Below are positions 135 through 14,720 of a stretch of DNA of 14,997 nt, piece by piece. How positions within the stretch are numbered: position 1 is the stretch's first letter; each line of letters opens with the position of its first letter. A program made the translations under genes and the position numbers. Source of the stretch: Martensiomyces pterosporus (taxonomy: Eukaryota; Kickxellomycota; Kickxellomycetes; Kickxellales; Kickxellaceae); contig MU604158.1 in assembly GCA_025201845.1 (NCBI GenBank), positions 1 through 14,997 of the forward strand, in the 5' to 3' direction. The notes under the pieces were generated by a model, which was not told the DNA's origin, searched no databases, and was given only the letters and a program-made list of their open reading frames with translations.

Positions 135-362
135 GCTTCCCTCTGCTCTCCGGGACTGGCTCTGCCAGCCTGTTTTTTGTTTTTTTGGACTGTTTGGTGT
201 TCAGGATTGTGCATTTTATCCTACTTTCTATCATTCACGTGGAATTACCCGTAAACAGTGGCATCTCGATAAGGCAGCCATCCACCAAGCTCCTACCATC
301 TGGCAGTGGCTTTGCTAGACATCCGTCTCTTTAGTCCCTGTCAAAGTGTATTTCGCTATAGG

Positions 363-1640
363 ATGCATAGCCGCTCGACTTCACACGCGCATCCGCAGGA
401 GCACGAGCATGGCCATGAACACGACCATGGTGGTGTTTTTGTTAGCGGCGGTGATGAAATGGATTCCAAAAACCTAAGTGAAGATGAATCGGAAGCCCGC
501 GCGCTAACCGACGTAATTGCAGCGTTCCTATGCTACAAGACATACACGCTGAACAGCGGTGTCTACCGACGTCTTCAAGCCATCGACCAATTGTCTGATC
601 GTCATCGATCCATCGTCTCTTCCCTGGGCACTATCGACAAGATCAAGCGTGCTGAGAGGCTTGTCCGTGAAAATTACAAATTCCTCCTTGATGTTGCCTA
701 CTCTAGTGCTATTGGACCGATGCCCGATCCAGCTAGCCAAACGAGTGAGTTTAAGGAGTGGATGGCGCAATTCTTCGAGGCAAGGAGGGCAGCGGGAAGA
801 CCGCTGGTGGAGGACCATCATATGGAGAAGCTGTACAGCACGCTGAAGCAGTTTGTACGTGACTGGTCCGCGGAGGGCAGAGAGGAGAGGGAGCAGACAT
901 ATGGCCCTCTTTTAAACGCTCTGGAGAGAGAGTTCGCCCATGTAAAACCGGAGTCCCGTGGTGCGATCAGAGTGCTGGTTCCAGGTGCTGGACTGGGTAG
1001 GCTGGCGTTCGATATCTGCTGTCGCGGGTTCAGTAGCCAGGGAAACGAGTTTTCGTACTTTATGCTTCTGGCATCCAACTATGTACTCAACAAGACCGAG
1101 CGTGTAAGCCAGCATGCCATCTATCCGTTCGTCCACCAGTTCTCCAACGTCGTGAAGGAGGAGGACCAGGTGCGGGCCGTTAGAATTCCTGACATTTTGC
1201 CTAGCCAAATGCCATTTGCGGACACCGCAGAGTTTTCGATGACTGCTGGCGACTTTATCGAGGTATATGGAGCAGAGGACGAGAAGGGAAGGTGGGATGC
1301 TATTGTTACGTGCTTCTTTATGGATACGGCGAAGAACGTCTTGGCATACTTGGATACGATGTGGAGTGCGATGAAACCAGGTGCGGTGTGGATCAACTTG
1401 GGCCCCTTGTTGTGGCACTTTGACAGCGTCCAGGGTGAGTCGTCGGTCGAGTTTACGCGCGAAGAGTTTATGGCCCTGGCGGAAAAGATCGGGTTTGTCT
1501 GGGATGGAGAGCAGTTCCAAGAGTGCATCCCAGTCTCGTATACCTCAAACTCGAGAAGCATGCTTCAGTACACGTACCGTGCCTTTATGACCGTTGCCCA
1601 CAAGCCAAACCAAGCCGCCGGAAACACCATTGCAAATTGA
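363..1640 (+). CDS. CARNMT1: Carnosine N-methyltransferase-like (N2227 family) SAM-dependent methyltransferase
   Basis: Predicted 425-residue enzyme of the N2227/UPF0586 family. The animal member methylates carnosine to anserine with S-adenosylmethionine; the physiological substrate in fungi is less clear. I recognise LKQFVRDWS (161-169), the SAM-binding glycine-rich motif VPGAGLGRL (206-214), QGNE (226-229), MTAGDF (293-298), TCFFMDTA (316-323) and WINLGPLLWHF (343-353), in family order. The human protein is of similar length (about 410). The frame is open upstream to a GTG at 306, but 363 is the first in-frame ATG, so I start there. A start at the next ATG (459) would remove an unusual His-rich segment (residues 8-22) and still leave the catalytic core whole. 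No signal peptide or membrane helix is visible, so it is probably cytosolic or nuclear. It converges on LCB1 with 138 bases between the stops. Confidence 0.92.
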   Translation: MHSRSTSHAHPQEHEHGHEHDHGGVFVSGGDEMDSKNLSEDESEARALTDVIAAFLCYKTYTLNSGVYRRLQAIDQLSDRHRSIVSSLGTIDKIKRAERLVRENYKFLLDVAYSSAIGPMPDPASQTSEFKEWMAQFFEARRAAGRPLVEDHHMEKLYSTLKQFVRDWSAEGREEREQTYGPLLNALEREFAHVKPESRGAIRVLVPGAGLGRLAFDICCRGFSSQGNEFSYFMLLASNYVLNKTERVSQHAIYPFVHQFSNVVKEEDQVRAVRIPDILPSQMPFADTAEFSMTAGDFIEVYGAEDEKGRWDAIVTCFFMDTAKNVLAYLDTMWSAMKPGAVWINLGPLLWHFDSVQGESSVEFTREEFMALAEKIGFVWDGEQFQECIPVSYTSNSRSMLQYTYRAFMTVAHKPNQAAGNTIAN

Positions 1641-1778: not shown

Positions 1779-3341
1779 TTAGCGCTTCTTGGAAGTGACA
1801 CGGCTAACGGCGCTTTTGACGGCATGCGCGCACTTTTCAATCTCTTTGCGAGAATGAGCAGACGACACGCAAATACGGATGCTCGAGTTGGGCATCAGAC
1901 GCTCATGTTCATCAACATACATCGCACGGGTAAGCAGGACGCCGTCCTTCTGAGCCTCATCGGTGAGCTCGGTAAGCACACGGTCGATATCGGTCTTGGT
2001 CCACGCACCGCCCGACCGCTTCATACGAACCAGAGTCTCGGGGGTCAGTCTGATATGGACAACAGGGCTCTCCGACGATCCATCCACTTGCAGACCAGGG
2101 ACACGCTTAAGCAGGGTGCGCAGGAGGGCGGTGTTATCCCTAAGCTCCTTCAGGTAGTTGTCAGGCTTGATCTCGAGTGCCTGGATGGCATCAGAAGCAG
2201 CGACGGTCAGAATGCTTGGCATGGACGCGGAGAAGCAGTAGCCAAGGCCCGAGAGTCTCTGGTGCTCAACCAGGTCCTTGTCAGCACAGCAAAAGCCACC
2301 CGAGGCGCCAATAGCGTAGCACAGGGAGCCAATAAGCAGATCAACCTCGTGAGGGTCAATGCTGTAATGGTCAGTGAGGCCAGCGCCTCGCTTTCCCAGA
2401 ACGCCAAAGGACAGAGACTCGTCGAGGATGATGCGGAACTTGTAGCGGTGCTTGAGCTCAACCAGGTCCTTCAGTGGCGCAATGTCGCCGGTGTTTTGGA
2501 ACAGTCCCTCCGTGATGATGAACTTGCGAGGAAGTGCGTTCTTGCCACGGCGTCCAGCCAGCTGCTTGTTGACGTCTTTGAGGACACGCTCGAGATCCGC
2601 CATATCGTTGTGCTTGTACCAGTACACCTTGCTGCGCGAAAGAGTGATTGCTTGCTGGATGGAAAACGTGACTGCCTCGTCGGCGACAATGATATCGCCG
2701 CGCTTGGAGAAGCAGGGGATAACCGAAAGAGTAGTGGTAAATGCCTGGCTGTAGAGGATGGCAGCCGAGTGACCAATAAATGCAGCCAGTTGCTTCTCGA
2801 GCTCCATATGAACATCCAGGGTGCCGTAGAATCCTGGAGGACCGCAGGACCCAACGCCATACTTGCGCAGGGTTTCCAGCGCATGCTTCTCAAGATCAGG
2901 GTTATTGACGAATCCAAGGAAGTTGTACGAGGCAAAGTTCAGGACCTGTTTGCTGCTGTTTCCAGATGCCAGTCTGATCTTGATGCCGTTGGGGCCATCG
3001 ATCATCACGGCCTTGTCGAGGGTCTCGCGCTCAAACTCGGTCAGTTCGGGGACCAGGGGCTCGGGCTTCCAGTCCTCGACGAGCTCGTCAATCTCCTTCT
3101 CGGTAAGCACAACCTCGTTGTTGCCGATGTTGTACTTTTGCTTTGTAATGTACCAGACGATGAATCCGACGAGGCAGGCTTCAAGGAAGGTGCGGAAGGG
3201 GTCATCCTTGTAAGAATTCTTGATGTACCTGAGTACCATGCGGAACGTGAAGTCCCATGCAGTGCGCAGAGCGCCGTGCTGCTGGGTGCCGCCGAGTGAC
3301 TCAAGCGAGGGTGCTGGCGTTGGAGTTGCGATTGACGCCAT
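1779..3341 (-). CDS. LCB1: Serine palmitoyltransferase subunit 1
   Basis: 520-residue LCB1/SPTLC1 subunit of serine palmitoyltransferase, which condenses L-serine with palmitoyl-CoA to 3-ketosphinganine, the first step of sphingolipid synthesis at the ER. It has a membrane segment at about 52-66, followed by the PLP-dependent alpha-oxoamine synthase fold. Family motifs are NFASYNFLG (135-143), GVGSCGPPGFYG (162-173, containing the cysteine equivalent to human C133), ILDESLSFG (305-313) and QRLSGLGYCFSASMP (361-375). The stretch where LCB2 carries its PLP-binding lysine (about 336-350 here) has no lysine. This is normal for LCB1, which works as a heterodimer with LCB2. The ORF starts with ATG, runs the full family length and has no intron. 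The partner LCB2 is not in this window. It diverges from the PPR gene across 3342-4048. Confidence 0.96.
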   Translation of the reverse strand: MASIATPTPAPSLESLGGTQQHGALRTAWDFTFRMVLRYIKNSYKDDPFRTFLEACLVGFIVWYITKQKYNIGNNEVVLTEKEIDELVEDWKPEPLVPELTEFERETLDKAVMIDGPNGIKIRLASGNSSKQVLNFASYNFLGFVNNPDLEKHALETLRKYGVGSCGPPGFYGTLDVHMELEKQLAAFIGHSAAILYSQAFTTTLSVIPCFSKRGDIIVADEAVTFSIQQAITLSRSKVYWYKHNDMADLERVLKDVNKQLAGRRGKNALPRKFIITEGLFQNTGDIAPLKDLVELKHRYKFRIILDESLSFGVLGKRGAGLTDHYSIDPHEVDLLIGSLCYAIGASGGFCCADKDLVEHQRLSGLGYCFSASMPSILTVAASDAIQALEIKPDNYLKELRDNTALLRTLLKRVPGLQVDGSSESPVVHIRLTPETLVRMKRSGGAWTKTDIDRVLTELTDEAQKDGVLLTRAMYVDEHERLMPNSSIRICVSSAHSRKEIEKCAHAVKSAVSRVTSKKR

Positions 3342-4048
3342 CTGGCTCCTGAATCAGTTTGCTTGGAAATGTCTCGCCCGAGGTAGATGGAAATGATTAG
3401 CTGGGATGAGAGGAAAGCGATGAGCGGAAATACTTGCTGCTGGTGTTCTTTTGGTGTTTGGGGTTTCCTTCATTCGACTCGCCCTGCCTCGATTGGTTCG
3501 AGCCGGTCGAGACCACTCACTGCCGCGGAAGTTGGTTCCGAACCGATGGGAAAAAAGGCGAAGAAGGTGCAGTGAGAAGCCAGGCGGGAAATCGGCAGCA
3601 TTGGCTTGGGCCCCAGACAAAGTGCCGCGGCGCGCCCGTGCTGCGCTTTGCTGGCTGGAGTTCGAGATCAGGCGGCTGGTGGGTGTGTGTTTGCGCGAAC
3701 AGGCTGTTGGGTGTTGCTGGAACCCTCGGGCTCCTGCCAGAGCTTCAATTGCTCTGCGCGCTGTAATAGAGTAGATACATTCTGTTACGAATTGCTCTGC
3801 CTCTATACCTTTTTGTGCCTGCTCTTTTTCAGGGCAGATCAAGGATTCGCTCCTGATATGCGATCATTATCGCCTTTCTCCTTCACCGCACTTTTCAAGT
3901 TCAAATCAGCACCTGGCTTTTCTCTTCCTCGGCTATTTGTAATTTGCTTTTAAATTTGTGCGTGGGAGGTTCATTTTTCGCATACACCTTCATTTTTCAT
4001 TTTGCAAGCTGCAGAAACTGCTGCTCGTCCACAGCTCATTTGCATTTA
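3342..4048. promoter_or_regulatory. Divergent intergenic region between LCB1 and the PPR gene
   Basis: This 707-base gap must hold the promoters and 5' leaders of both divergent genes. CCAAT is present on the minus strand at 3492-3496 and 3600-3604, reading toward LCB1. There is an imperfect palindrome GGTTC-C-GAACC at 3534-3544 and CCGCGG at 3523-3528. The plus-strand side (about 3790-4040) is pyrimidine-rich, as is common in fungal leaders. Short ORFs here have no recognisable domain and biased composition; I do not call them genes. Confidence 0.5.
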
Positions 4049-7000
4049 ATGGCGTTGCGGAGCAGCGGTGGGGGCTGTTGGAGTTTGCCCTTGGCTCGCA
4101 ATGCAAAATCAGTAACAGCAGCAGCAGAGAGTCGACGCTGGTACCACAAGCCACGATATCAATGCCAGCTAAAGCAAAAGAAGGTGCAGCAGCGAATACA
4201 GGCGGCAGCGCCCTCAGTCACAGCTTGGGACAAACCAGCAACTAGACGCAGAGGCAAGATGGATTTGTGGAGCCAGCAATTAATGCATACAAGCGCTATA
4301 TCGAGGGAGCAGAGCGCCAGAGAGGCAGAGATCACAGAGGCGGTTGCCAAGCTGGCAGGTTTGCTAGAGAGTGATTCGGGTAATGCTCCGGAGATATGGG
4401 CAGCCTATGACCGACTAAAGATCCGCAGGATGCTTTCTTTTGTGCCCTACGAAGCCTGGGCCAGCTTGCTCAAAGCATGCCAGCGGACACCACACAAGCA
4501 ATCAATAGAACAGCGCGGTCAGCGACTGGACCGGATGCCTTCAGCACAATCGCTGTTTCCTCTTCGACGAGCATCTGGCGGTGCACTGGAAAGCACGTTT
4601 GGCAGGGAGTTTGTGGGGAGCAGCGAGATGCACCCGTGGACGCGCAGGATGGCAAAAATGCGGGCGTTGATGATTCTGGGCGATATGTGGCGATACACAG
4701 ACCTTAGCCACAGCATTGACAGCACTCAGCAGCTGGACAGTGCTGGCAGTAAGGATGATGAGCTCGTAGAGAATGGTGATAATGGAGTCCATGAGACATC
4801 CCACCCAATGTGGCGGCCAGCAGCTCTCCACTACAACATCGCCCTCGATGTGATTTGTCGCGACCCCTCATCTACAGTTGACGAGCTGATTTCGCTGCAC
4901 CGCGATATGCGGTTACATAGCATTCAAGAGGACGCGGTGACATTCAATACGCTTTTGAACGGGTGTCGGCGGATTCATGCGTGGAAGTACTTTCGTGTCA
5001 TCGACCAGCAACTGCGAAAGCGAGATGAGTGGGGGGTAACGCGTATGGATGCAACCACTTGGGGCACACTTATTCAGGGGTACAAGGAATGCATGGACTG
5101 GAGTGCTGTGGACAGCTGTGTTGCGCAAGCCAGTGCTGCTAGTCATGAGTGGCACAAGTCGCAAGGCGCGCCGGGACCAGGCACGCACGCAGTCAAACCT
5201 ACAGCCGAGCTGTGGAGCACAATTGTCAACGTGTATGCGGTCCGTGATATGGTCCCGCAGATGATTGCGTCAAGGCAGGTGATGCACGCGCTTGACCTGC
5301 CAATGAGCTTGTATACGTTTGCACCGATGTTTGCCGCGCTGCATAGATTTCGCAAGCACTTGATTCGGGACCAGAAGGACGCCTGGCCAGCAATTACGCT
5401 GGCGCTTGAGGAGCTCGAGGCGATGCGACAGTGTGGAGTTACGCCCAACGCCACTGTTCTGACTAACGTGATGCTGACGCTGGCGCTGGAGAACCCATAT
5501 GGCGCAAACAACCAAGCTGAGGATGGAAGCCGAGGGCAGTGCGATAAGGTGTCGAGTGTTGGTGGATCAATTGCACGGGAGCTGGAGGCAATGCTAGTAA
5601 GGGCGCGAGACCCCAACATTTATGCTGCCCTGTTTAACACTAACGGAAGGGCAAGGAGCTTGGATGATGTAAAGTCGATATGGCAGACGCTAGAGACAGA
5701 GTCGCAGTTTACCCACGATGATTCTGCACAGCCGCTTCTGTCGTCGCTGACACTAGCTGCTTACATGCACGCACTTATCAACTGCAAGGCATACGACGAT
5801 GCTATTGCCGCATTCTATAAATACGCAGCGCCCACACAACCTTCAAAAGACACGCAGCCAGGTAGTAGAGGCCACCTGGCGTCGGTGACACTAAAGAACG
5901 TGGATCGGTCGGTGTACGAGGCATCGATCAGGGCGTTCGCACTCGCTGATCGCCATCGAATGTGCCCACAGGTGATTCGAAAGATGATCAACTCGGGAAT
6001 TGAGCCCAGCGTGTTTGCACTAAGATACATGCTTCTAGCTCCCGACCAGGCGTACTCGAAGAGAAAGCACCAGCATAAGTACACTCGCAGGTGGAGTCTT
6101 CCGCTGGCGGTTGCGCGCGAGGCATGGGACATGATTCTGGGCATTAGACGGGAGAAGTGGATGAATGGGCCCCTCCTGCGCGATGAACCTCATAGTATCG
6201 ATGCTGGGATGAGTGGATCGGCCAAGCTAGGCAAGCGCAGTCATAGCTCGGCAGGCGAGCTGCCGGTGATTGTTAATGACATTGCAGCACAGTACATACG
6301 GATTGCTGCGTATGCGCGCAGTGTGCAGTTTGGCGAGCAGGTGTTTGAGGCATTGGAATCCGAGGCAGAGTACTTTGGAATTGGCCACGAACACCGCGCA
6401 AAAGAACGGGCATCTACCCACACCAGCGATACATATGAGAGCTCGGGGGATGCCGGTTTGGAGAGTGGGGCAGATTCAGGATATTCTCGCGGGCACAGTC
6501 GGTTCCCGGACGACCTTCAGTGTGCGCCGAATGTTCGCACCTATACATCGATGATCACAATGTATGGAAACGACGCGAATCTGGCTGGTGTTAGCAAGAT
6601 GTGGGCGAGCATGCTGCGTGATGGGGTGGAGCCCAATCTGATGACTTATACTAGCCTTATTAGCGCACTGCACAAGGTTGCACTGCGAAAGCGGTGGAAA
6701 CGCACGCAGACGTATTCGGAGATGGCCGCGTCAGGCAGCAAATTTGCCATGGACTCGCGAACCAAAGCCGACTCCGAGGAGCAAGGGCCAAAGGATGCAA
6801 ATGGCACTGGGGAGCTCTGGTGGGGCTCGACCAAACAGGACAATATGATTAGCCAGATCGAGGACCATATCTTGGGGGGAGTGCCCAAGCGGGACGGCAG
6901 AGAGCATGCAGCATCTATGTATGCTAGCCAGCAGTTGCAGCTGTTTGGAGACGGTAGATCTCCAGGCTTGGATATCCCACTAAGTACGCTGCTTCTGAGG

Positions 7001-7252
7001 TACCACTCTGTCAGGATTCGCGACACTATCCGCGATGTGCCCAAGGATTCGAGTAATGGCGCTGCGACGTATGTTGACCGCGATACAGCAGAGGACATCA
7101 AGAGGGCAATGCGCGTTTGCCAGGCGGTCGAGGACTCAGGGTTGGAGCCGGATTATAGGTTCCATTCAGCATTGGCGGATTTTTTCGAGACCTGTGGCGA
7201 CTCTTCGGGTGCCGAACTAGTGAGAAGCCATGTGGACACGAGTGTAGATTAA
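4049..7252 (+). CDS. Large pentatricopeptide-repeat (PPR)-like protein, probably mitochondrial
   Basis: 1067-residue helical-repeat protein. The frame is open upstream only from a TTG at 3944; 4049 is the first ATG and opens a basic, Ser/Arg-rich stretch with few acidic residues typical of a mitochondrial presequence (about 1-45). PPR-like helix pairs can be seen at about 296-330 (VTFNTLLNGC), 336-361 (TWGTLIQGY), 387-418 (LWSTIVNVYA), 523-551, 568-593, 621-664 and most clearly 828-876 (VRTYTSMITMYG, then MLRDGVEPN and MTYTSLISAL). Long polar linkers interrupt the repeats, for example about 782-822. PPR proteins bind single-stranded organellar RNA and act in its processing, stability or translation; the target cannot be read here. 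No catalytic domain (SMR, DYW or nuclease) is evident. The gene has no intron. Confidence 0.8.
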   Translation: MALRSSGGGCWSLPLARNAKSVTAAAESRRWYHKPRYQCQLKQKKVQQRIQAAAPSVTAWDKPATRRRGKMDLWSQQLMHTSAISREQSAREAEITEAVAKLAGLLESDSGNAPEIWAAYDRLKIRRMLSFVPYEAWASLLKACQRTPHKQSIEQRGQRLDRMPSAQSLFPLRRASGGALESTFGREFVGSSEMHPWTRRMAKMRALMILGDMWRYTDLSHSIDSTQQLDSAGSKDDELVENGDNGVHETSHPMWRPAALHYNIALDVICRDPSSTVDELISLHRDMRLHSIQEDAVTFNTLLNGCRRIHAWKYFRVIDQQLRKRDEWGVTRMDATTWGTLIQGYKECMDWSAVDSCVAQASAASHEWHKSQGAPGPGTHAVKPTAELWSTIVNVYAVRDMVPQMIASRQVMHALDLPMSLYTFAPMFAALHRFRKHLIRDQKDAWPAITLALEELEAMRQCGVTPNATVLTNVMLTLALENPYGANNQAEDGSRGQCDKVSSVGGSIARELEAMLVRARDPNIYAALFNTNGRARSLDDVKSIWQTLETESQFTHDDSAQPLLSSLTLAAYMHALINCKAYDDAIAAFYKYAAPTQPSKDTQPGSRGHLASVTLKNVDRSVYEASIRAFALADRHRMCPQVIRKMINSGIEPSVFALRYMLLAPDQAYSKRKHQHKYTRRWSLPLAVAREAWDMILGIRREKWMNGPLLRDEPHSIDAGMSGSAKLGKRSHSSAGELPVIVNDIAAQYIRIAAYARSVQFGEQVFEALESEAEYFGIGHEHRAKERASTHTSDTYESSGDAGLESGADSGYSRGHSRFPDDLQCAPNVRTYTSMITMYGNDANLAGVSKMWASMLRDGVEPNLMTYTSLISALHKVALRKRWKRTQTYSEMAASGSKFAMDSRTKADSEEQGPKDANGTGELWWGSTKQDNMISQIEDHILGGVPKRDGREHAASMYASQQLQLFGDGRSPGLDIPLSTLLLRYHSVRIRDTIRDVPKDSSNGAATYVDRDTAEDIKRAMRVCQAVEDSGLEPDYRFHSALADFFETCGDSSGAELVRSHVDTSVD

Positions 7253-8289: not shown

Positions 8290-9294
8290 TCACCTATTCA
8301 GCATACTGATAGGCGAGAGAACCTTTTGTGTGGACGACTTTTGGATGAACGTGGCAATGTTTGATAGCCCCCGGTCTTCAACATAGTTGGGACCTGGGTG
8401 GGGCTGCAGCTGGCTCTCGCTGGTCATCAATGGGAACCACTCCAGGTCCGTGTAGTTATCAGCAGCCTTCACATTCCTCATGGGCAGAATACTGTCGACC
8501 ACCAGAGGCGAGCCATCCGGCAGGCCGTGTCGCCCCTGCGAATCCATCGTCAGCTCGGTGCCAACACTGATGTGGTAGGTGGCATTCGAGTACGTTTCGT
8601 GCAAAGTTGGTGGGTTCTGCGCCAGGGATCCGCCGGTATATCGCGAGGCAAGGTCATCGGTGATGGAGCCATTGGACTTTGGATTCATAAATACGCCGCC
8701 GTCTTCCGAAAAGTGGTTGTCCTTGGGCCTGTTGGGGTTGAAGCTGCCGCCAAGCTCGAGCGCCAGTAGCTGCATTTCCTCCTTCTGGTGTTCTTCGAGC
8801 TGGCGCCTACGCGAGCGCTTGCGGTAATGGAAATACCCGAACACGCCCAAAATGATAAGCACAATGACGCCGCCTGCAGCGCCGCCGGCAATGGCACCCA
8901 CATTGGTTGAGCTCTTGCTGCTCGCCGCCGCAGTTTCAGTCGCTTGTGCCGATCCAGGTCCGGGGGTTGGTGTGGAGAGCGGGGTGAGCGTCGGCAGAGT
9001 TGATGGTATGACGGGCATTGTAAGTGTGGCAGTCTTGCCATCGTTGTAGGTGGTTGTGACCAGTGTTCCGACCAGTGTGGAAACTTGCAAGTTGTCGTTC
9101 ATTATCATGAGGATGCTTGTGTATGTTGTTGGCTGGGTTAGCTGCTCGCCATTGCCGTTCTTGTCAGTCGTGGATATTGTTGCCACACCAGTTCCCACCG
9201 TCACCTTTACATTCGTGTATGCCGAAACGAGCGGCGTGGCTACTAGCAGCCCGAGGGCAAGGAGGGCTGATGTTTGCCGCTGCAAGCCAAACAT
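8290..9294 (-). CDS. Receptor-like type I membrane protein with Ser/Thr/Pro-rich ectodomain
   Basis: 334-residue protein, family not recognised. It has a signal peptide (1-25, hydrophobic core 9-23), then a small ectodomain (about 26-95) rich in Val/Thr and probably beta-stranded. A Pro/Thr/Ser stalk follows (96-131), then a Gly-rich transmembrane helix (132-157, GAIAGGAAGGVIVLIILG) and a basic stop-transfer stretch (YRKRSRRR). The cytoplasmic tail spans 158-334. The tail carries LALELGGSF (177-185), SRY (217-219), GTELTMD (245-251), DGSP (260-263) and YTDLE (281-285). The same motifs occur in the same order and nearly the same spacing in the tail of the pseudoprotease at 10436-11908. The ORF stays open to an ATG at 9645. 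I start at 9294 because the signal peptide begins exactly there, the 117-residue extension is low-complexity, and a TATA-like element lies between the two ATGs. Role unknown; a surface sensor or adhesion receptor is inference. Confidence 0.82.
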   Translation of the reverse strand: MFGLQRQTSALLALGLLVATPLVSAYTNVKVTVGTGVATISTTDKNGNGEQLTQPTTYTSILMIMNDNLQVSTLVGTLVTTTYNDGKTATLTMPVIPSTLPTLTPLSTPTPGPGSAQATETAAASSKSSTNVGAIAGGAAGGVIVLIILGVFGYFHYRKRSRRRQLEEHQKEEMQLLALELGGSFNPNRPKDNHFSEDGGVFMNPKSNGSITDDLASRYTGGSLAQNPPTLHETYSNATYHISVGTELTMDSQGRHGLPDGSPLVVDSILPMRNVKAADNYTDLEWFPLMTSESQLQPHPGPNYVEDRGLSNIATFIQKSSTQKVLSPISMLNR

Positions 9295-10435
9295 CACTGC
9301 TGTTCTGCGAGGGAGTGTATGGATGACTGGGTAGCGAAAAAGAGATGGCGCTAAGCAGCAATGCAGGCGTTTGTACGATACTAGACAACCGATGCCAAAC
9401 GGCACTTTGGCAAAGTTATCGGAAGTCAAATGCAATGATAATGGAACAAGGGGAAATGGAAGAGGCAGCGGAAATATTAAACTGCTGCTGGCCAGAATAT
9501 AGACATGGAATAGAAATGGAAACAACACAAGAGGGCGGTATCGAGCAAGAGGGAGCAGGGTAGCGATATATATGAGTGAAGAGGAAGAAAGAAGTGGAAA
9601 TAAGGGAGTTGGCTTCTGGGCCCTAAATTTAGGTGGAGCAGACATACAGCCGCGTATCTACCTCCACACGCCTCCACCTGATAGCCGCTGTTGTATGTGC
9701 CCATGAACAACAGCAATTCTAGTTAGTCCGTGCAAACTAGCCATAGATGATTCTACTCGCGTACCCGTTAAAAGCTTGCTATTTTTGTCTCCTCTGGTGA
9801 AAAAGTGGTTCACAGCTCCCTCGCTCCTACCCGCCGCTAGCTTACGCTGTTTATGTTTTCCATTTGCGCCCAAGCGGGAGGGATTTGCATGGGTGATGGC
9901 ATTTTTCTGATTTTCCGCCCTTCTAATGGCGTGGAGGCTCCCTTGGCATTGCGCTGCACGTCCCACCATATGGTTTCTCTACTGTGCTAATCATTCAGGA
10001 TTTGTGCACCAAGCATATGCAGCGGCGGCAGCTACATTCTGCTGCTGCTTGTTTTTTGGGGACGAGGGAAGACGGGCTGGCTCTGCAGCGCGAGAATTGG
10101 CTGGTCAACGGCTGAAGTCCAAGGGAGCCTGCTCATTTGCCATGCATCTATAATTAGCACAGGCGACATTGCTCATGACCAGGATGCAGCAGCACAGGCG
10201 CATGGACAGCACAGCCTATGCCCTTTGGTGCTGAAGGGCTCCGCCACAGGCAGGAGACATGTAGCGACACTGCGTGTGGTGGTGGCCGAAAAGAGTATCC
10301 GTGAGAACGGACACGGCAAATGGACTGCGCGGCATGCTGGTTGAGCCAGCAATTCTTAGATCATGGCACTGCGTTGGGCGACATCAATAGCAACAACACG
10401 ACAACAAAAACCAAGGCAGACTCTGGCGCCTTGGG
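9295..10435. other. Long intergenic region; leader and promoter of the receptor-like gene
   Basis: Positions 9295-9650, read on the minus strand, form a CT-rich leader. TATATAT-type sequence lies at 9566-9573, about 270 bases upstream of the ATG at 9294. A nine-codon upstream ORF on the minus strand (9477-9506) could lie in the leader. From 9650 to 10435 I see no convincing gene. A short hairpin (10335-10340 with 10346-10351) lies about 85-100 bases beyond the 3' end of the pseudoprotease gene. No AATAAA was seen for that gene. Confidence 0.4.
9566..9573 (-). promoter_or_regulatory. TATA-like element upstream of the receptor-like gene
   Basis: An ATATATAT run in an otherwise mixed-composition stretch, upstream of the CT-rich leader. 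If it positions transcription, the in-frame ATG at 9645 is not transcribed and the start at 9294 is used. Confidence 0.4.
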
Positions 10436-11908
10436 CTAAAGAGTAATGAGGTCGCTCCGGTTATCTGAGTAGTCGTAGAGGTAGTCCTCCAAATACGGAT
10501 AGTAATCCGACACCCTTCCCTCGCGGCTAGGCCGGATAAACTCCATGACCATCGGCGACCCATCCGCATACCTGTGGGTTTTGCTCAGCGTGTCCATCGA
10601 AATCTCCGTCCCCATCTCGGCCAGGTGCGGGATGTTTTCGGAGAATGGCGCCTCTGACCCATCGTCATAAGTCGACGTTCTCAGGTACCTGCTCGTAAAC
10701 GACGGGCGGCCAACCAGCCCGTCTTCGTACGGGGTGATGGTGGATGAATTGAGGATACTGACGGTGGTCGACCGCTTGGGCTCATACGATCCACCGAGTT
10801 CCTCAGCCAGCTGCTGCAGGCCCAGCTCGTAGATATACTCGCTGCGCTTGTTCTCCTTCTGCCGCTTGATGCTGCGGTACAGGAAATAGCCCAGGAGGGC
10901 GATAAGGACGATGGCCACCACAGCACCCACGGCTATGCCAGCAATGGCTCCAGTGGACAGGCTCTTTGGCGGTGAGACGATGGTTTCTGTTGGGCCAGGG
11001 GTAGGCGTTGTGCCGCTTGCCGGAGGCACCAGTAGTGTGTTGCCCGTGAATGCATCGTCAGAGAGGCCAGTTTTTGCCTTGAGGAACGATATGTAGCTGT
11101 ACACGTGGGTATACAGCGCCATGGTGTTGCTGTTGGCACAGCGATCGAGCTTGCCGCCCATGGTAACAAAGGACGAAAACACGCCAACTAGTTTCGGAAT
11201 GTTGTTGTCGTAGGTAATCAGAGGACCACCGTAGTCGCCCAGGCACGGAGACACGTTGGGAGTGAGCTTATTGAGCGTGCAAATGGCTCTTCCATTGGTG
11301 TTTGTATAAGGGCTAGTGGCGTTCTTGCACGTAGCATCGTCGCCAACAATAACCTTGGCATAATTCAGATCGTTGCTGGTAGCCCCGCTATAAGCGTTCG
11401 TTGACCCCCACCCCATGAAAGTAAGCGAGTCGCCGCTCTGCAGGGTGCCAATGTAGAGCGGAACACGGTTGACCTTGTCTGAAATATACTGCGTGAGGTT
11501 GACCTGCAGCAGAGCAATGTCGTCGACACCCGTTGCCGGGGTATACGTACTATCGACGATGATTTTCTTTACAGGCACTAGGGCCTGGCTGCCCAGGTTG
11601 CTGTTGCCAAACCCGACCCTGATGTTGCCCTCCGAGACCGCCTGCTTTGCCGCGGGGTCGTAGACACAGTATGCGGATGTCACGATGATTTGGTCCGTGA
11701 GAATTGCACCTGCGCAAGCAGTGCTGTTGGTTACATCGGGCGACGAGATGAACACAGCAAACGGATAGTCGGTGCTCTGGGCTTTGCTCCCGCCAATGAC
11801 GCGCTTGGACAGGCCATGGTATGTGGGCAGCGACGATGCTGCTGCTGCCACTGCTACTGCTAAGACGAGCGAGATGACTCCCAAAGATAGGCTCCGAAAA
11901 GGGCACAT
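10436..11908 (-). CDS. Membrane-anchored trypsin-fold pseudoprotease with receptor-like cytoplasmic tail
   Basis: 490-residue protein. It has a signal peptide (1-25), a short propeptide ending in Lys-Arg (35-36, a Kex2-type site), and a chymotrypsin-fold (S1) domain from VIGG (37-40) to about 276. A Thr/Pro stalk, a transmembrane helix (about 319-344) and a 146-residue cytoplasmic tail follow. Six cysteines (65, 81, 194, 210, 222, 257) match three canonical S1 disulfides. The catalytic triad is broken: TAAHC reads TSAYC, so His57 is Tyr80, and GDSGGP reads GDYGGP, so Ser195 is Tyr226. Asp102 (Asp130) and Asp194 (Asp225) remain. Loss of both His and Ser predicts no proteolysis, as in haptoglobin or azurocidin. 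Sequons at N61, N137, N196 and N218 suit a glycosylated ectodomain. The tail holds LAEELGGSY (367-375), SRY (406-408), GTEISMD (433-439), DGSP (449-452) and YPYLE (470-474), shared with the receptor-like neighbour. Its S1 domain is paralogous to that of 12538-13554. Confidence 0.88.
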   Translation of the reverse strand: MCPFRSLSLGVISLVLAVAVAAAASSLPTYHGLSKRVIGGSKAQSTDYPFAVFISSPDVTNSTACAGAILTDQIIVTSAYCVYDPAAKQAVSEGNIRVGFGNSNLGSQALVPVKKIIVDSTYTPATGVDDIALLQVNLTQYISDKVNRVPLYIGTLQSGDSLTFMGWGSTNAYSGATSNDLNYAKVIVGDDATCKNATSPYTNTNGRAICTLNKLTPNVSPCLGDYGGPLITYDNNIPKLVGVFSSFVTMGGKLDRCANSNTMALYTHVYSYISFLKAKTGLSDDAFTGNTLLVPPASGTTPTPGPTETIVSPPKSLSTGAIAGIAVGAVVAIVLIALLGYFLYRSIKRQKENKRSEYIYELGLQQLAEELGGSYEPKRSTTVSILNSSTITPYEDGLVGRPSFTSRYLRTSTYDDGSEAPFSENIPHLAEMGTEISMDTLSKTHRYADGSPMVMEFIRPSREGRVSDYYPYLEDYLYDYSDNRSDLITL

Positions 11909-12537: not shown

Positions 12538-13554
12538 TCACTCAGATTCGGCTCCATCATCGGCGTCGCTGGCATCTCCTGTGTCAAGTGTGCGCGAGGC
12601 AAGCTCATACGTCTGGCCCCACCGTGTCCTGGTCTTGGCCTGCCGCATCTTCCAGATGCGCAACAGGATGAACCCGAGCATCACTGCTGCTGCAATCGAG
12701 CTGAACACAATACCAGCGACAGCACCCTTTCCCAGCCTCTTTTTGTGCTCAATCTGGTCGCTTTGCTCAGCTACTGGTGCTGTGAATGTATCAACAGGCA
12801 CCTGTGTCACTGCAGCAATAAAATCCAGGTAGCTATATACATGTGTATAAAACGCCAGACTCGAGTTCTTTGCACACCTGTCGTATCCCTCAGGCGACAG
12901 GTCGACATGGTAGCTGTATATGCCGACAAGTTGGTAGTGGCCATTCACCTTGGCAACCAGGCTAGCTCCAAACTCGCCATCGCACAAATCATGGCCAGGG
13001 TACAGCTTGTTGTCGGTACACAGCACACGGCCCTCGACGCCGTTATAGTTGCGGCTTCTCCGGCACCTTTCGGGGTCGCCAATGCGCACACCAGTAGTCA
13101 GCAGCTTCTCCGACCACTCGCCTCCAACCTCTTTATCCACGCCCCAGCCCATGACATCCAGCTGTTCGTTTTCCTTGACGCTGCCCGAATACACAGGAAT
13201 CCTGTCCACACTGGGGAGCGAAAAGTCCAGTGGCTCTACTTGCAACAGGGCTATGTCGTTGGCCATCTCCTTCCGCTTAAACTGCGGGTCCACTGCTACT
13301 TTCACCACCCGTGCGTGCCGCAGCTTGCTGCGCTCCGTTGACCCGTACCCAACTAGGAGCTCGTCATGGTTTATCACCTGCAGGGTATTTGGGTGTACTA
13401 AGCAGAAGGCGGGCACCACAATTACCTCCGGATGGATGATTGTTCCGACGCATTGGAGTGGCCGCTTGTCGCGCGTGTAGCTGAGGTGTGCCACAAATGG
13501 GAACTCGCCTTCTTTGGCCTCCCGTCCGCCGACGATTCTCTTTGTAAGTGCCAT
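12538..13554 (-). CDS. Second trypsin-fold membrane pseudoprotease; N-terminal exon possibly missing
   Basis: 338 residues from the first in-frame ATG. Lys-Arg (5-6) directly precedes IVGG (7-10), then an S1 domain to about 249, a stalk, a transmembrane helix (about 277-299) and a short 39-residue tail with TYELASRTL (315-323). Six cysteines (35, 51, 164, 179, 191, 227) match the S1 disulfides. The triad is broken: His57 is Phe50 (VPAFC), Ser195 is Phe195 (GEFGAS) and Asp194 is Glu194, while Asp102 (D100) remains. It is a paralogue of the protein at 10436-11908: both share YTHVYSY followed by a [IL]xF segment near the end of the domain. No signal peptide is present, although the family layout requires one. 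The TAA just upstream is followed by an AG acceptor with a CTAAC branch-point-like motif 14 bases before it. An upstream exon is therefore likely, but I could not find one. The alternative is a decaying gene. Confidence 0.78.
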   Translation of the reverse strand: MALTKRIVGGREAKEGEFPFVAHLSYTRDKRPLQCVGTIIHPEVIVVPAFCLVHPNTLQVINHDELLVGYGSTERSKLRHARVVKVAVDPQFKRKEMANDIALLQVEPLDFSLPSVDRIPVYSGSVKENEQLDVMGWGVDKEVGGEWSEKLLTTGVRIGDPERCRRSRNYNGVEGRVLCTDNKLYPGHDLCDGEFGASLVAKVNGHYQLVGIYSYHVDLSPEGYDRCAKNSSLAFYTHVYSYLDFIAAVTQVPVDTFTAPVAEQSDQIEHKKRLGKGAVAGIVFSSIAAAVMLGFILLRIWKMRQAKTRTRWGQTYELASRTLDTGDASDADDGAESE

Positions 13555-13584: not shown

Positions 13585-14080
13585 GGCATGTATGGAATGA
13601 AAGAGCATAAAAGGCGGATTGTAAGGAAAGATGTCCAGCGGTTGCGAAGAGGTGTTTTATGCTTCGTGCTCTGTAGACTTGCCTTGGGAACTACGTAGGC
13701 AGATGGGCAGGTGTGACCTCCTTGCACATGCTTGTGTGCGTGGCATGCAGGCGAAGCACCTCTTTTATTGTGCGCCAATTGGCCTGAAAATCAAGGTTGC
13801 CAAGCCCTTTTAGACAATGGCCACCATCAACTTGCTTCGGTGCAAGAAAAACAGGGCAGGCCAAAAGGCCGCCTATAGAAGAAAGGAGCTTCTGCACTAT
13901 TTCTGTAGCCAGATACAGGCGCTTGCAGATCACTTTGCCAGCTGCTCCGCTCCAACTTTAAGAGCGAGTTCGTTTTAAACACACCCACACCCATCTCTAA
14001 CCATCTCTCATTGCTTCTGCAGCTTTGCCGCTACAGATCTCTGACTTGCACCGTCTTTGCCTCCGTAATCATACTATTAA

Positions 14081-14092
14081 ATGCAACTATAA
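14081..14092 (+). promoter_or_regulatory. Three-codon upstream ORF before the GPI-protein gene
   Basis: ATG, two sense codons and TAA end one base before the main ATG at 14094. If the transcript begins upstream, ribosomes would have to terminate and re-initiate or bypass this ATG. Confidence 0.4.
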
Positions 14093-14093
14093 A

Positions 14094-14720
14094 ATGCTCC
14101 GCCTAGCTATTGTCGCCACACTCGCTGCCCAGGCAGTCAATGCGCAGTTCAAGTTCAATCCAGGAACTTACAACCCGTCTGAACTGTACAACTTCATTTC
14201 GGCCAACTACCCAACTATGGAGGTCGCCTGGCAGAAGTACCTGGACGATGCCAAAGCATCGTTCACAGGCGCTTACCCTGTTCTGACGTCCATATTTGCC
14301 ACCACCGCCATCCCCACCACATTTGACTCTGCCTTCGCCAGCCACCTCGCGGACGAGCTGTACAAGTTGGGCACCACAACCGTCGTTGACCCGCTCGTCA
14401 ACTCTGCCACCCTGAGGTTCACGGGCACGATGACTGCTACCAGTGGTACTCAGCCTACCACTGCTGCCACCGCCACTGCCACTTCTCGGGCGTCGACTCA
14501 GGCTCCGACTTCCAGCACATCCATAGCAGCATCCTCAAGCGATACTAACGTGTTTACCCTGGCGCCATCCACCACGACTGCAGCCTCCACCACTGTGCAG
14601 ACAACAAAGAGTACCGCAGCCACAAGCAAGAACGCTGCTGTTCCTGGTGCTTCTCCTGGGACTCGTGTGGGCCTTGCTGCTGCCGCTGCTGCCCTTGGTG
14701 GAATGTACTGCCTGTTCTAG
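14094..14720 (+). CDS. Secreted Ser/Thr-rich protein, probably GPI-anchored
   Basis: 208-residue protein, family not recognised. It has a signal peptide (1-17, cleaved near VNA-Q), then a compact N-terminal domain (about 18-105) with aromatic and Asp residues, no cysteine and probably helical. A Ser/Thr/Ala-rich stretch follows (about 109-180), likely O-mannosylated. The C-terminus looks like a GPI-attachment signal: small residues with a probable omega site around 180-188, a short spacer with one Arg, then a hydrophobic end (LAAAAAALGG and a few more residues). This predicts a plasma-membrane or cell-wall protein. The frame is open upstream without ATG; I start at 14094 because it is the first in-frame ATG, opens the signal peptide and has A at -3. 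It diverges from the pseudoprotease gene across a CCAAT-palindrome region. Confidence 0.85.
   Translation: MLRLAIVATLAAQAVNAQFKFNPGTYNPSELYNFISANYPTMEVAWQKYLDDAKASFTGAYPVLTSIFATTAIPTTFDSAFASHLADELYKLGTTTVVDPLVNSATLRFTGTMTATSGTQPTTAATATATSRASTQAPTSSTSIAASSSDTNVFTLAPSTTTAASTTVQTTKSTAATSKNAAVPGASPGTRVGLAAAAAALGGMYCLF

What the first reader, a model, noticed from the sequence alone, without database searches (positions are those of the whole stretch)
8290..11908. Undescribed cytoplasmic tail module shared by a receptor-like protein and a pseudoprotease
The two adjacent minus-strand genes have unrelated ectodomains but collinear tails. In order, residues in 8290-9294 versus 10436-11908 are: LGGS 181-184 versus 371-374; SRY 217-219 versus 406-408; GTExxMD 245-251 versus 433-439; DGSP 260-263 versus 449-452; YxxLE 281-285 versus 470-474. 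The last spacing is identical (21 residues) and the others differ by one or two. I recognise no known domain. Conserved motifs in a cytosolic tail outside any enzymatic fold suggest a docking platform for a shared partner, that is, a receptor family with swappable ectodomains.
Basis: partly seen in the sequence, partly recalled or inferred. Interest (0 to 1): 0.85.

Follow-up and report, generated by a model that had tools for sequence, protein, structure and literature searches.

The report
Shared tail on fungal surface pseudoproteases
Two neighbouring genes of a fungus make surface proteins with unrelated outer parts but the same inner tail, a so far unnamed module that probably tells the cell how to deliver or retrieve them, and one of the two belongs to a group of dead trypsin-like enzymes that look re-used as surface receptors.

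Summary
The tails of the 334-aa protein (8290-9294) and the 490-aa trypsin-like protein (10436-11908) are homologous (BLASTP 4e-19; 0 of 2000 shuffles reach the tail score; profile-profile probability 99%); their ectodomains are not. No Pfam or PDB sequence match covers the tail. All named carriers found are Kickxellales. In this genome the full tail is on four genes: the 334-aa protein and three trypsin-fold pseudoproteases, so on two ectodomain types, not many. The two genes are neighbours in three of five other strains checked; the other two are undecided. Three parts of the mostly disordered tail are conserved: a juxtamembrane helix (box 1), GTExxMD..DGSP, and a terminal YxxL present in every complete tail. 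YxxL reads as a clathrin-adaptor (AP mu) sorting signal, as in yeast Mid2; the rest suggests a second docking partner. Beyond the finding: 17 of 17 tabulated trypsin-fold proteins with membrane anchor and cytosolic tail in this genome have lost the triad, while 12 of 12 with an intact triad lack such a tail; 13 of the 17 form a second, much diverged clade, mostly with LPxY/PPxY tails. Function is inferred, not tested.

The parts
8293..9294 (-). 334-aa type I membrane protein (P0001): signal-peptide-like start, beta-rich ectodomain about 26-94, Ser/Thr/Pro stalk, TM about 134-152, shared tail
   Evidence: alignment with homologs supports the start at 9294 rather than the ORF start at 9645
10439..11908 (-). 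490-aa type I membrane pseudoprotease (P0002): signal-peptide-like start, KR|VIGG site, trypsin fold 37-275 with Y80 (His57 place), D130, Y226 (Ser195 place), TM about 321-339, shared tail
8734..8796 (-). box 1 of P0001 (residues 167-187), juxtamembrane helix ending in ALELGGSFNP
8428..8565 (-). box 2 of P0001 (residues 244-289): VGTELTMD, PDGSP, YTDLEW
10769..10837 (-). box 1 of P0002 (residues 358-380): YIYELGLQQLAEELGGSYEPKRS; 20 of 23 columns invariant in 12 rows
10487..10612 (-). box 2 of P0002 (residues 433-474): GTEISMD, ADGSP, YPYLE
12541..13554 (-). third gene of the tandem: trypsin-fold pseudoprotease (F/D/F at the triad), TM, short 40-aa tail without the module; the frame starts just before its KR site, so a 5' exon with the signal peptide may be missing

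Best explanation
The finding is a conserved cytosolic tail module shared by two adjacent surface-protein genes of Kickxellales: a trypsin-fold pseudoprotease and a small beta-rich protein. The tail is predicted to be mostly disordered apart from a juxtamembrane helix and works through short linear motifs: box 1 (helix ending in LGGSYxP), a GTExxMD..DGSP stretch with a possible proline-directed phosphorylation site, and a terminal YxxL. Most likely the YxxL is read by a clathrin-adaptor mu subunit so that both proteins are delivered, polarised or retrieved together, as proposed for yeast Mid2 and AP-2, while box 1 and the GTExxMD..DGSP stretch bind a second, unknown partner. The ectodomains bind different ligands; the pseudoprotease domain, cut at a Kex2-type KR site, would act as a binding domain. 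Shown here: homology of the tails, conservation, neighbouring genes in three other assemblies, loss of the triad. Inferred: topology, sorting, phosphorylation, Kex2 cleavage, ligand binding.
For: Tail homology. Box conservation against linkers: P0002 box 1 88.9% identity, 20 of 23 columns invariant; box 2 67.5%, 19 of 42; linker 45.4%, 9 of 52. P0001 box 2 79.0% against 20.6-36.6% for stalk and linkers; ectodomain 39.2%. YxxL at the same place in 12 of 12 pseudoprotease rows and 28 of 29 P0001-family rows, the miss being truncated before it, and in both paralogs C18 and C184. Tail mostly coil at low confidence after the helix. The genome holds a mu-adaptin-type protein with KWVRY, the residues quoted for human mu2 in PMC4282331 (passages read), where the Mid2 tail binds Apm4 and Y278A in its single YXXPhi cuts binding by more than half; in PMC6426607 (passages read) truncating the Apm4 YXXPhi-binding region strongly impairs Chs3 uptake in Candida albicans. 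Same longest-contig length and consecutive locus tags of both genes in 3 of the 5 strains or species named in both hit lists.
Against: No experiment. YxxPhi is a short pattern and common by chance; other YxxPhi matches occur in the P0002 and C18 tails and in several class II tails. PMC4282331 reports no phenotype when the mutations were expressed in vivo. Most of the conservation (box 1, GTExxMD, DGSP, IxPxR) is not needed for a YxxPhi signal, so sorting cannot be the whole function. Taken whole, the P0002 tail is no more conserved than its trypsin domain (55.2% against 54.5% mean identity): only the boxes stand out. The DGSP serine is E in C18 and the SP is lost in C184. In 2 of 5 strains or species the two genes lie on different contigs, so linkage is undecided there. 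AlphaFold models are of low confidence (mean pLDDT 52.4 and 55.8).
Confidence: 0.45

Rival explanations
1. Signalling platform: the tail docks a kinase, GEF or scaffold (as Mid2/Wsc tails dock Rom2, recalled), with box 1 as the binding helix and DGSP as a regulated phosphosite; YxxL is part of that interface, not a sorting signal.
For: Box 1 is the most conserved of the seven P0002 regions compared (88.9% against 58.7% for the trypsin domain), and box 1-like sequences sit 21-25 residues after the TM in 9 of 15 class II relatives (uncorrected p under 0.05), which suggests a common partner.
Against: No known docking domain is recognised; nothing identifies the partner.
Confidence: 0.3
2. Shared descent without a shared function: P0001 arose by tandem duplication of a membrane pseudoprotease gene whose ectodomain was replaced, and the tail is kept by unrelated constraints in each.
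For: Tandem same-strand order of three genes; tail homology.
Against: The same columns stay conserved in both families across the Kickxellales found. No trypsin remnant between the genes: tblastn at E up to 1 gave two matches of 13 and 19 residues, E 0.32 and 0.76. Direction of transfer cannot be read from these data.
Confidence: 0.15
3. Regulated shedding: the ectodomain is released by a membrane protease and the tail is the released intracellular fragment.
For: Single-pass type I layout with a stalk.
Against: The stalk is poorly conserved (34.0% and 20.6%). Nuclear-localisation or cleavage sites were not looked for.
Confidence: 0.06
4. Chance match of motifs.
For: SRY fails in most relatives.
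Against: 0 of 2000 shuffles, hhalign E 3.9e-18.
Confidence: 0.01

Closest known systems
Yeast cell-wall stress sensor Mid2 (and Wsc family)
   Same: Single-pass surface protein whose cytosolic tail carries one YXXPhi that contributes to binding the AP-2 mu subunit in vitro (PMC4282331, passages)
   Different: No Pfam Mid2 match for P0001 or P0002 at E up to 0.1; one class II relative has a sub-threshold Mid2 match over its TM (E 0.00026, 21.2 bits against a cut-off of 23.2). Box 1, GTExxMD and DGSP were not compared with the Mid2 tail itself.
Arthropod serine protease homologs (catalytically dead S1, e.g. CLIPA and masquerade types; search listing with abstract starts only)
   Same: Trypsin fold with lost catalytic residues, kept as a non-enzymatic protein
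   Different: The listed examples are mainly immune cofactors of arthropods (one listed abstract mentions three honey-bee homologs that may be membrane-associated); here fungal, C-terminally anchored, with a conserved cytosolic module
Type II transmembrane serine proteases (TMPRSS)
   Same: TMPRSS2 is the best PDB sequence match to the P0002 ectodomain and among the top fold matches, after MASP-1; two database relatives are named 'Transmembrane protease serine 5'
   Different: TMPRSS are N-terminally anchored active enzymes (recalled); here the anchor is C-terminal and the triad is lost

Membership tests
Peptidase S1 (trypsin) fold, PF00089 | profile match and trypsin fold | tested here: met
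   P0002 1.9e-30; Foldseek to MASP-1 4.0e-14 on a low-confidence model
Active S1 peptidase | His57, Asp102, Ser195 | tested here: not met
   P0002 Y/D/Y; C18 L/D/A; C184 T/D/G; third window gene F/D/F. Orthologs: Y at His57 in 9 of 10 assessable and Y at Ser195 in 10 of 11; Linderina A/N/S, Dipsacomyces Y/N/Y
Mid2-like sensor | PF04478 profile match | tested here: not met
   no match for P0001 or P0002 at E up to 0.1
AP mu-sorted cargo (works-like claim) | YxxPhi in the cytosolic tail | tested here: met
AP mu-sorted cargo (works-like claim) | physical binding to a mu subunit | not testable with these tools
   only the presence of a mu-type protein with KWVRY was shown
Rsp5/WW-ubiquitinated cargo | PPxY or LPxY in the tail | tested here: not met
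   absent from the P0001, P0002, C18 and C184 tails; present in 11 of 15 class II tails
Known Pfam domain for the tail | profile match | tested here: not met
   whole proteins (P0002 matches below cut-off lie on the TM, reaching residue 355 at most) and ten tails (four stray families, each in 1 of 10 rows, best E 0.052). NCBIfam also gave none, but it is a prokaryote library

The most novel reading that the evidence does not exclude
Kickxellales re-used the trypsin fold as the ligand-binding part of a surface receptor superfamily: two clades of membrane-anchored pseudoproteases (class I, 4 genes; class II, at least 15 genes in this genome), most with an aromatic residue in place of the catalytic serine, joined to a common juxtamembrane box and to tail sorting codes (YxxL in class I; LPxY/PPxY, partly fused with YxxPhi, in class II), with the short beta-rich protein as a co-inherited partner that shares the class I tail and acts with the pseudoprotease as a receptor pair.
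Probability: 0.3. Interest if true: 0.82.

Novelty: new variant of a known kind. Interest (0 to 1): 0.6.

Why it matters
Few surface receptors are known in early-diverging fungi (recalled). A trypsin fold whose triad is lost in every tabulated member that has an anchor and a cytosolic tail would be a clear case of an enzyme family turned into receptors, and the shared tail gives a direct handle (box 1 and YxxL peptides) on the machinery behind them. The relatives are mostly listed as hypothetical proteins, or as trypsin-like or transmembrane serine proteases, which would mislead.

Tried and rejected
Chance similarity: rejected. Similarity of the two ectodomains: none. Known fold for the P0001 ectodomain: Foldseek against PDB gave no match at E 0.001 or better (best 0.092). 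A trypsin remnant between the two genes: none convincing. Pfam hits over TM segments (TM_ErbB1, EphA2_TM, Mid2, SKG6, Psg1, TMEM154) lie below their cut-offs; TMEM51 for the C114 fragment is above (27.0 against 25.5 bits); none was followed as homology. Some P0001 relatives carry precomputed Pfam labels PF21314 (P0012, P0015) or PF05795 (P0023), not followed. Acidic dileucine [DE]xxxL[LI] in box 1: strict in 21 of 29 P0001-family rows but absent from P0002; in C18 and C184 the pattern instead overlaps the YxxL (DYYPLL, DHYPLL). A C-terminal PDZ-like pattern in the pseudoprotease family (10 of 12) was left unproven. A DNA pattern scan of the window for PY-encoding sequence gave 1 match where 1.2 are expected, no use. 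Literature: searches listed all 5, 4, 3 and 0 papers that held the terms (Kickxellomycotina or Kickxellales with trypsin; Coemansia with serine protease; pseudoprotease, trypsin, fungi and transmembrane); two searches showed the top 12 of 79 and 10 of 89. None of the listed titles is about this family. Of PMC8778642 and PMC5954228 I saw search passages only: they held nothing on tails or pseudoproteases. Only this open-licence library was searched.
Full report
Observation. The two proteins align over TM and tail at E 4e-19. With the TM removed the tails score 120 against a shuffle mean of 31.6 (0 of 2000 as high), and with the juxtamembrane helix also removed 87 against 29.5 (0 of 2000); the ectodomains show nothing. 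Profiles of the two families' tails match with probability 99.0 and E 3.9e-18, their ectodomains with 0.3 (26 of 29 P0001-family tails were used because a simple cutting rule missed P0011, P0026 and P0046, and all 12 pseudoprotease tails).

Who carries the tail. The P0001 search returned 30 proteins at E up to 1; the 25 with E at or below 7.3e-46 are 24 named proteins of Dipsacomyces, Coemansia or Linderina and one unnamed (P0024); the other five (E 1.4e-3 to 0.94) I did not count as relatives. The P0002 tail alone found 11 proteins, all trypsin-domain proteins of Dipsacomyces, Linderina, Kickxella or Coemansia. The P0001 tail alone found 26, 25 of them named and again of Dipsacomyces, Coemansia or Linderina, and P0024. 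These four genera are Kickxellales. Neither tail search found the other family, which shows how limited word-based searching is here. In the window's genome (17.4 Mb, 216 contigs, unnamed) the full tail is on four genes: the two in the window, C18:186085-187470 and C184:9335-10564. The two extra ones are trypsin-fold proteins.

Anatomy of the tail. Tail lengths after the TM are 182 (P0001), 151 (P0002), 147 (C18) and 109 (C184) residues. AlphaFold gives one helix running from the TM into the cytosol (P0002 319-370, P0001 133-180) and low-confidence, mostly coil structure after it, with short helices at 211-219 in P0001 and 485-489 in P0002 (low-confidence models from 12 and 29 sequences). Conservation is confined to blocks: P0002 box 1 (358-380) 88.9% identity and 20 of 23 columns invariant, box 2 (433-474) 67.5% and 19 of 42, linker 45.4% and 9 of 52, stalk 34.0%, trypsin domain 58.7%; P0001 box 1 69.6%, a family-specific SITDDLASRYTGGS block 88.1%, box 2 79.0%, linkers 23.4% and 36.6%, ectodomain 39.2%. 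Taken whole, the P0001 tail is far better kept than its ectodomain (57.8% against 33.5%), but the P0002 tail is not (55.2% against 54.5%). The common core of both families is L.xLA.EL.GS[YF].P, GTE[LI].[ML]D, DGSP, I.P.R..K.[SA]D.Y..L. SRY is not part of it: [ST]RY in 3 of 12 pseudoprotease rows.

YxxL. The terminal Y..L is kept in 12 of 12 and 28 of 29 rows (the exception is truncated) and in both paralogs, with different middle residues (YTDL, YPYL, YPLL, YRHL), as expected of a YxxPhi signal (definition from PMC4282331 and PMC6426607, passages read). The genome has three PF00928 places; the one at C1:42796-43659 carries KWVRY, the residues quoted for human mu2 in PMC4282331. In that paper the yeast Mid2 tail binds Apm4 in vitro and Y278A cuts the binding by more than half, but the authors report no phenotype of the mutations in vivo.

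The pseudoprotease. P0002 has Tyr at both the His57 and Ser195 places. Among 11 orthologs, Tyr at His57 in 9 of 10 assessable and Tyr at Ser195 in 10 of 11; Linderina is A/N/S and Dipsacomyces Y/N/Y. C18 is L/D/A, C184 T/D/G, the third window gene F/D/F. One search examined 20 distinct trypsin-fold frames of this genome: 12 keep His, Asp and Ser, and none of these has a TM followed by a cytosolic tail; 5 have a TM and a tail of 40 residues or more and all are triad-dead (one of them, C40, is class II); 3 more are dead without a tail. Six PF00089 places listed (C28 two, C45 two, C104, C3) were not examined. In a quick tree of 34 trypsin-fold domains the class I set (8 rows, with the third window gene) is one side of a branch with SH-aLRT 93, or 99 without that gene. 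Class I proteins have a dibasic KR directly before [IV][VIL]GG in 14 of 14 assessable rows, while 2 of 12 intact-triad paralogs do, as does one dead tail-less frame (C77). This suggests constitutive Kex2-type processing in place of trypsin-type activation (inference).

A second clade. Searching with the C40 and C114 TM-plus-tail pieces uncovered more single-pass proteins. Counting C40 and C114, 15 are or appear to be very diverged trypsin-like proteins, two of them contig-end fragments (C114 and C115:52352). Of the 13 intact ones 11 match PF00089 at E up to 0.01, 3 of them over the family cut-off, and the 13 form one side of a branch with support 100. In a joint alignment all 13 have lost the triad in the same style: S, N or A at His57, N at Asp102 (13 of 13) and Y or F at Ser195 (8 and 5); P0002 (Y) and the third window gene (F) have an aromatic there too. 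With the four class I genes this makes 17 of 17 tabulated tailed proteins dead. Eleven of the 15 have [LP]PxY in the tail, in five of them running on into YxxPhi, e.g. LPAYADV (C109, C70 two, C115d, C114), so the two codes are not cleanly separate. The genome has an Rsp5-like locus on C46 with three WW matches next to a HECT match. Nine of 15 have a box 1-like 14-mer at uncorrected shuffle p under 0.05 (two at 0.0005), all 21-25 residues after the TM, as in the four full-tail genes (21-25); six do not, nor does the third window gene (p 0.22). These rows were found through TM-plus-tail queries, so the p values are not independent of the selection. One neighbour, C40:124633 (L061), has a Ser/Thr-rich ectodomain without a trypsin match, a weak box 1 (p 0.062) and PPSY.

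Synteny. Of the five strains or species named in both hit lists, three have both genes with the same longest-contig length and consecutive locus tags (LPJ53_005496/005497, IWW36_003795/003794, GGI07_005562/005561); in Dipsacomyces acuminosporus and Coemansia sp. RSA 2599 the contigs differ, so adjacency there is undecided.

Judgement. Its likely work is linear-motif docking: a sorting signal (YxxL) plus an unidentified partner of box 1 and of the GTExxMD..DGSP stretch. The idea of many ectodomains on one tail is not borne out for the full module. The wider and more interesting pattern is that membrane anchoring, a cytosolic tail and loss of catalysis go together in the trypsin-fold proteins of this fungus.

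Noticed in passing
G000 contigs C115, C30, C37, C70, C40, C109, C114 (L046-L073): At least 15 further single-pass proteins with very diverged trypsin-like ectodomains, 11 of them with LPxY/PPxY in the tail; five lie within about 27 kb of C115. All 13 intact ones have N at Asp102 and Y or F at Ser195.
   Followed up: partly
window 12541-13554 (-): Third tandem gene: trypsin-fold pseudoprotease with F/D/F at the triad and a short 40-aa tail without the module.
   Followed up: partly
L061:1333-2337 (-), C40:124633: Ser/Thr-rich single-pass protein without a trypsin match but with a weak box 1 and PPSY, near a class II gene.
   Followed up: no
window 8290-9294, residues 301-304 of P0001: GPxY conserved in 28 of 29 family rows near the C-terminus; resembles a degenerate PY motif.
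   Followed up: no
window 10439-10480 (-): C-terminus of the pseudoprotease family ends in a hydrophobic-x-hydrophobic pattern in 10 of 12 rows (PDZ-ligand-like).
   Followed up: no
window 14025-14720 (+): Ser/Thr-rich secreted-looking protein with a hydrophobic C-terminus, GPI-anchor-like by eye; no Pfam match.
   Followed up: no
window 306-1640 (+), 1779-3341 (-), 3944-7252 (+): Carnosine N-methyltransferase family, aminotransferase class I/II (serine palmitoyltransferase-like by eye), and a PPR protein.
   Followed up: no
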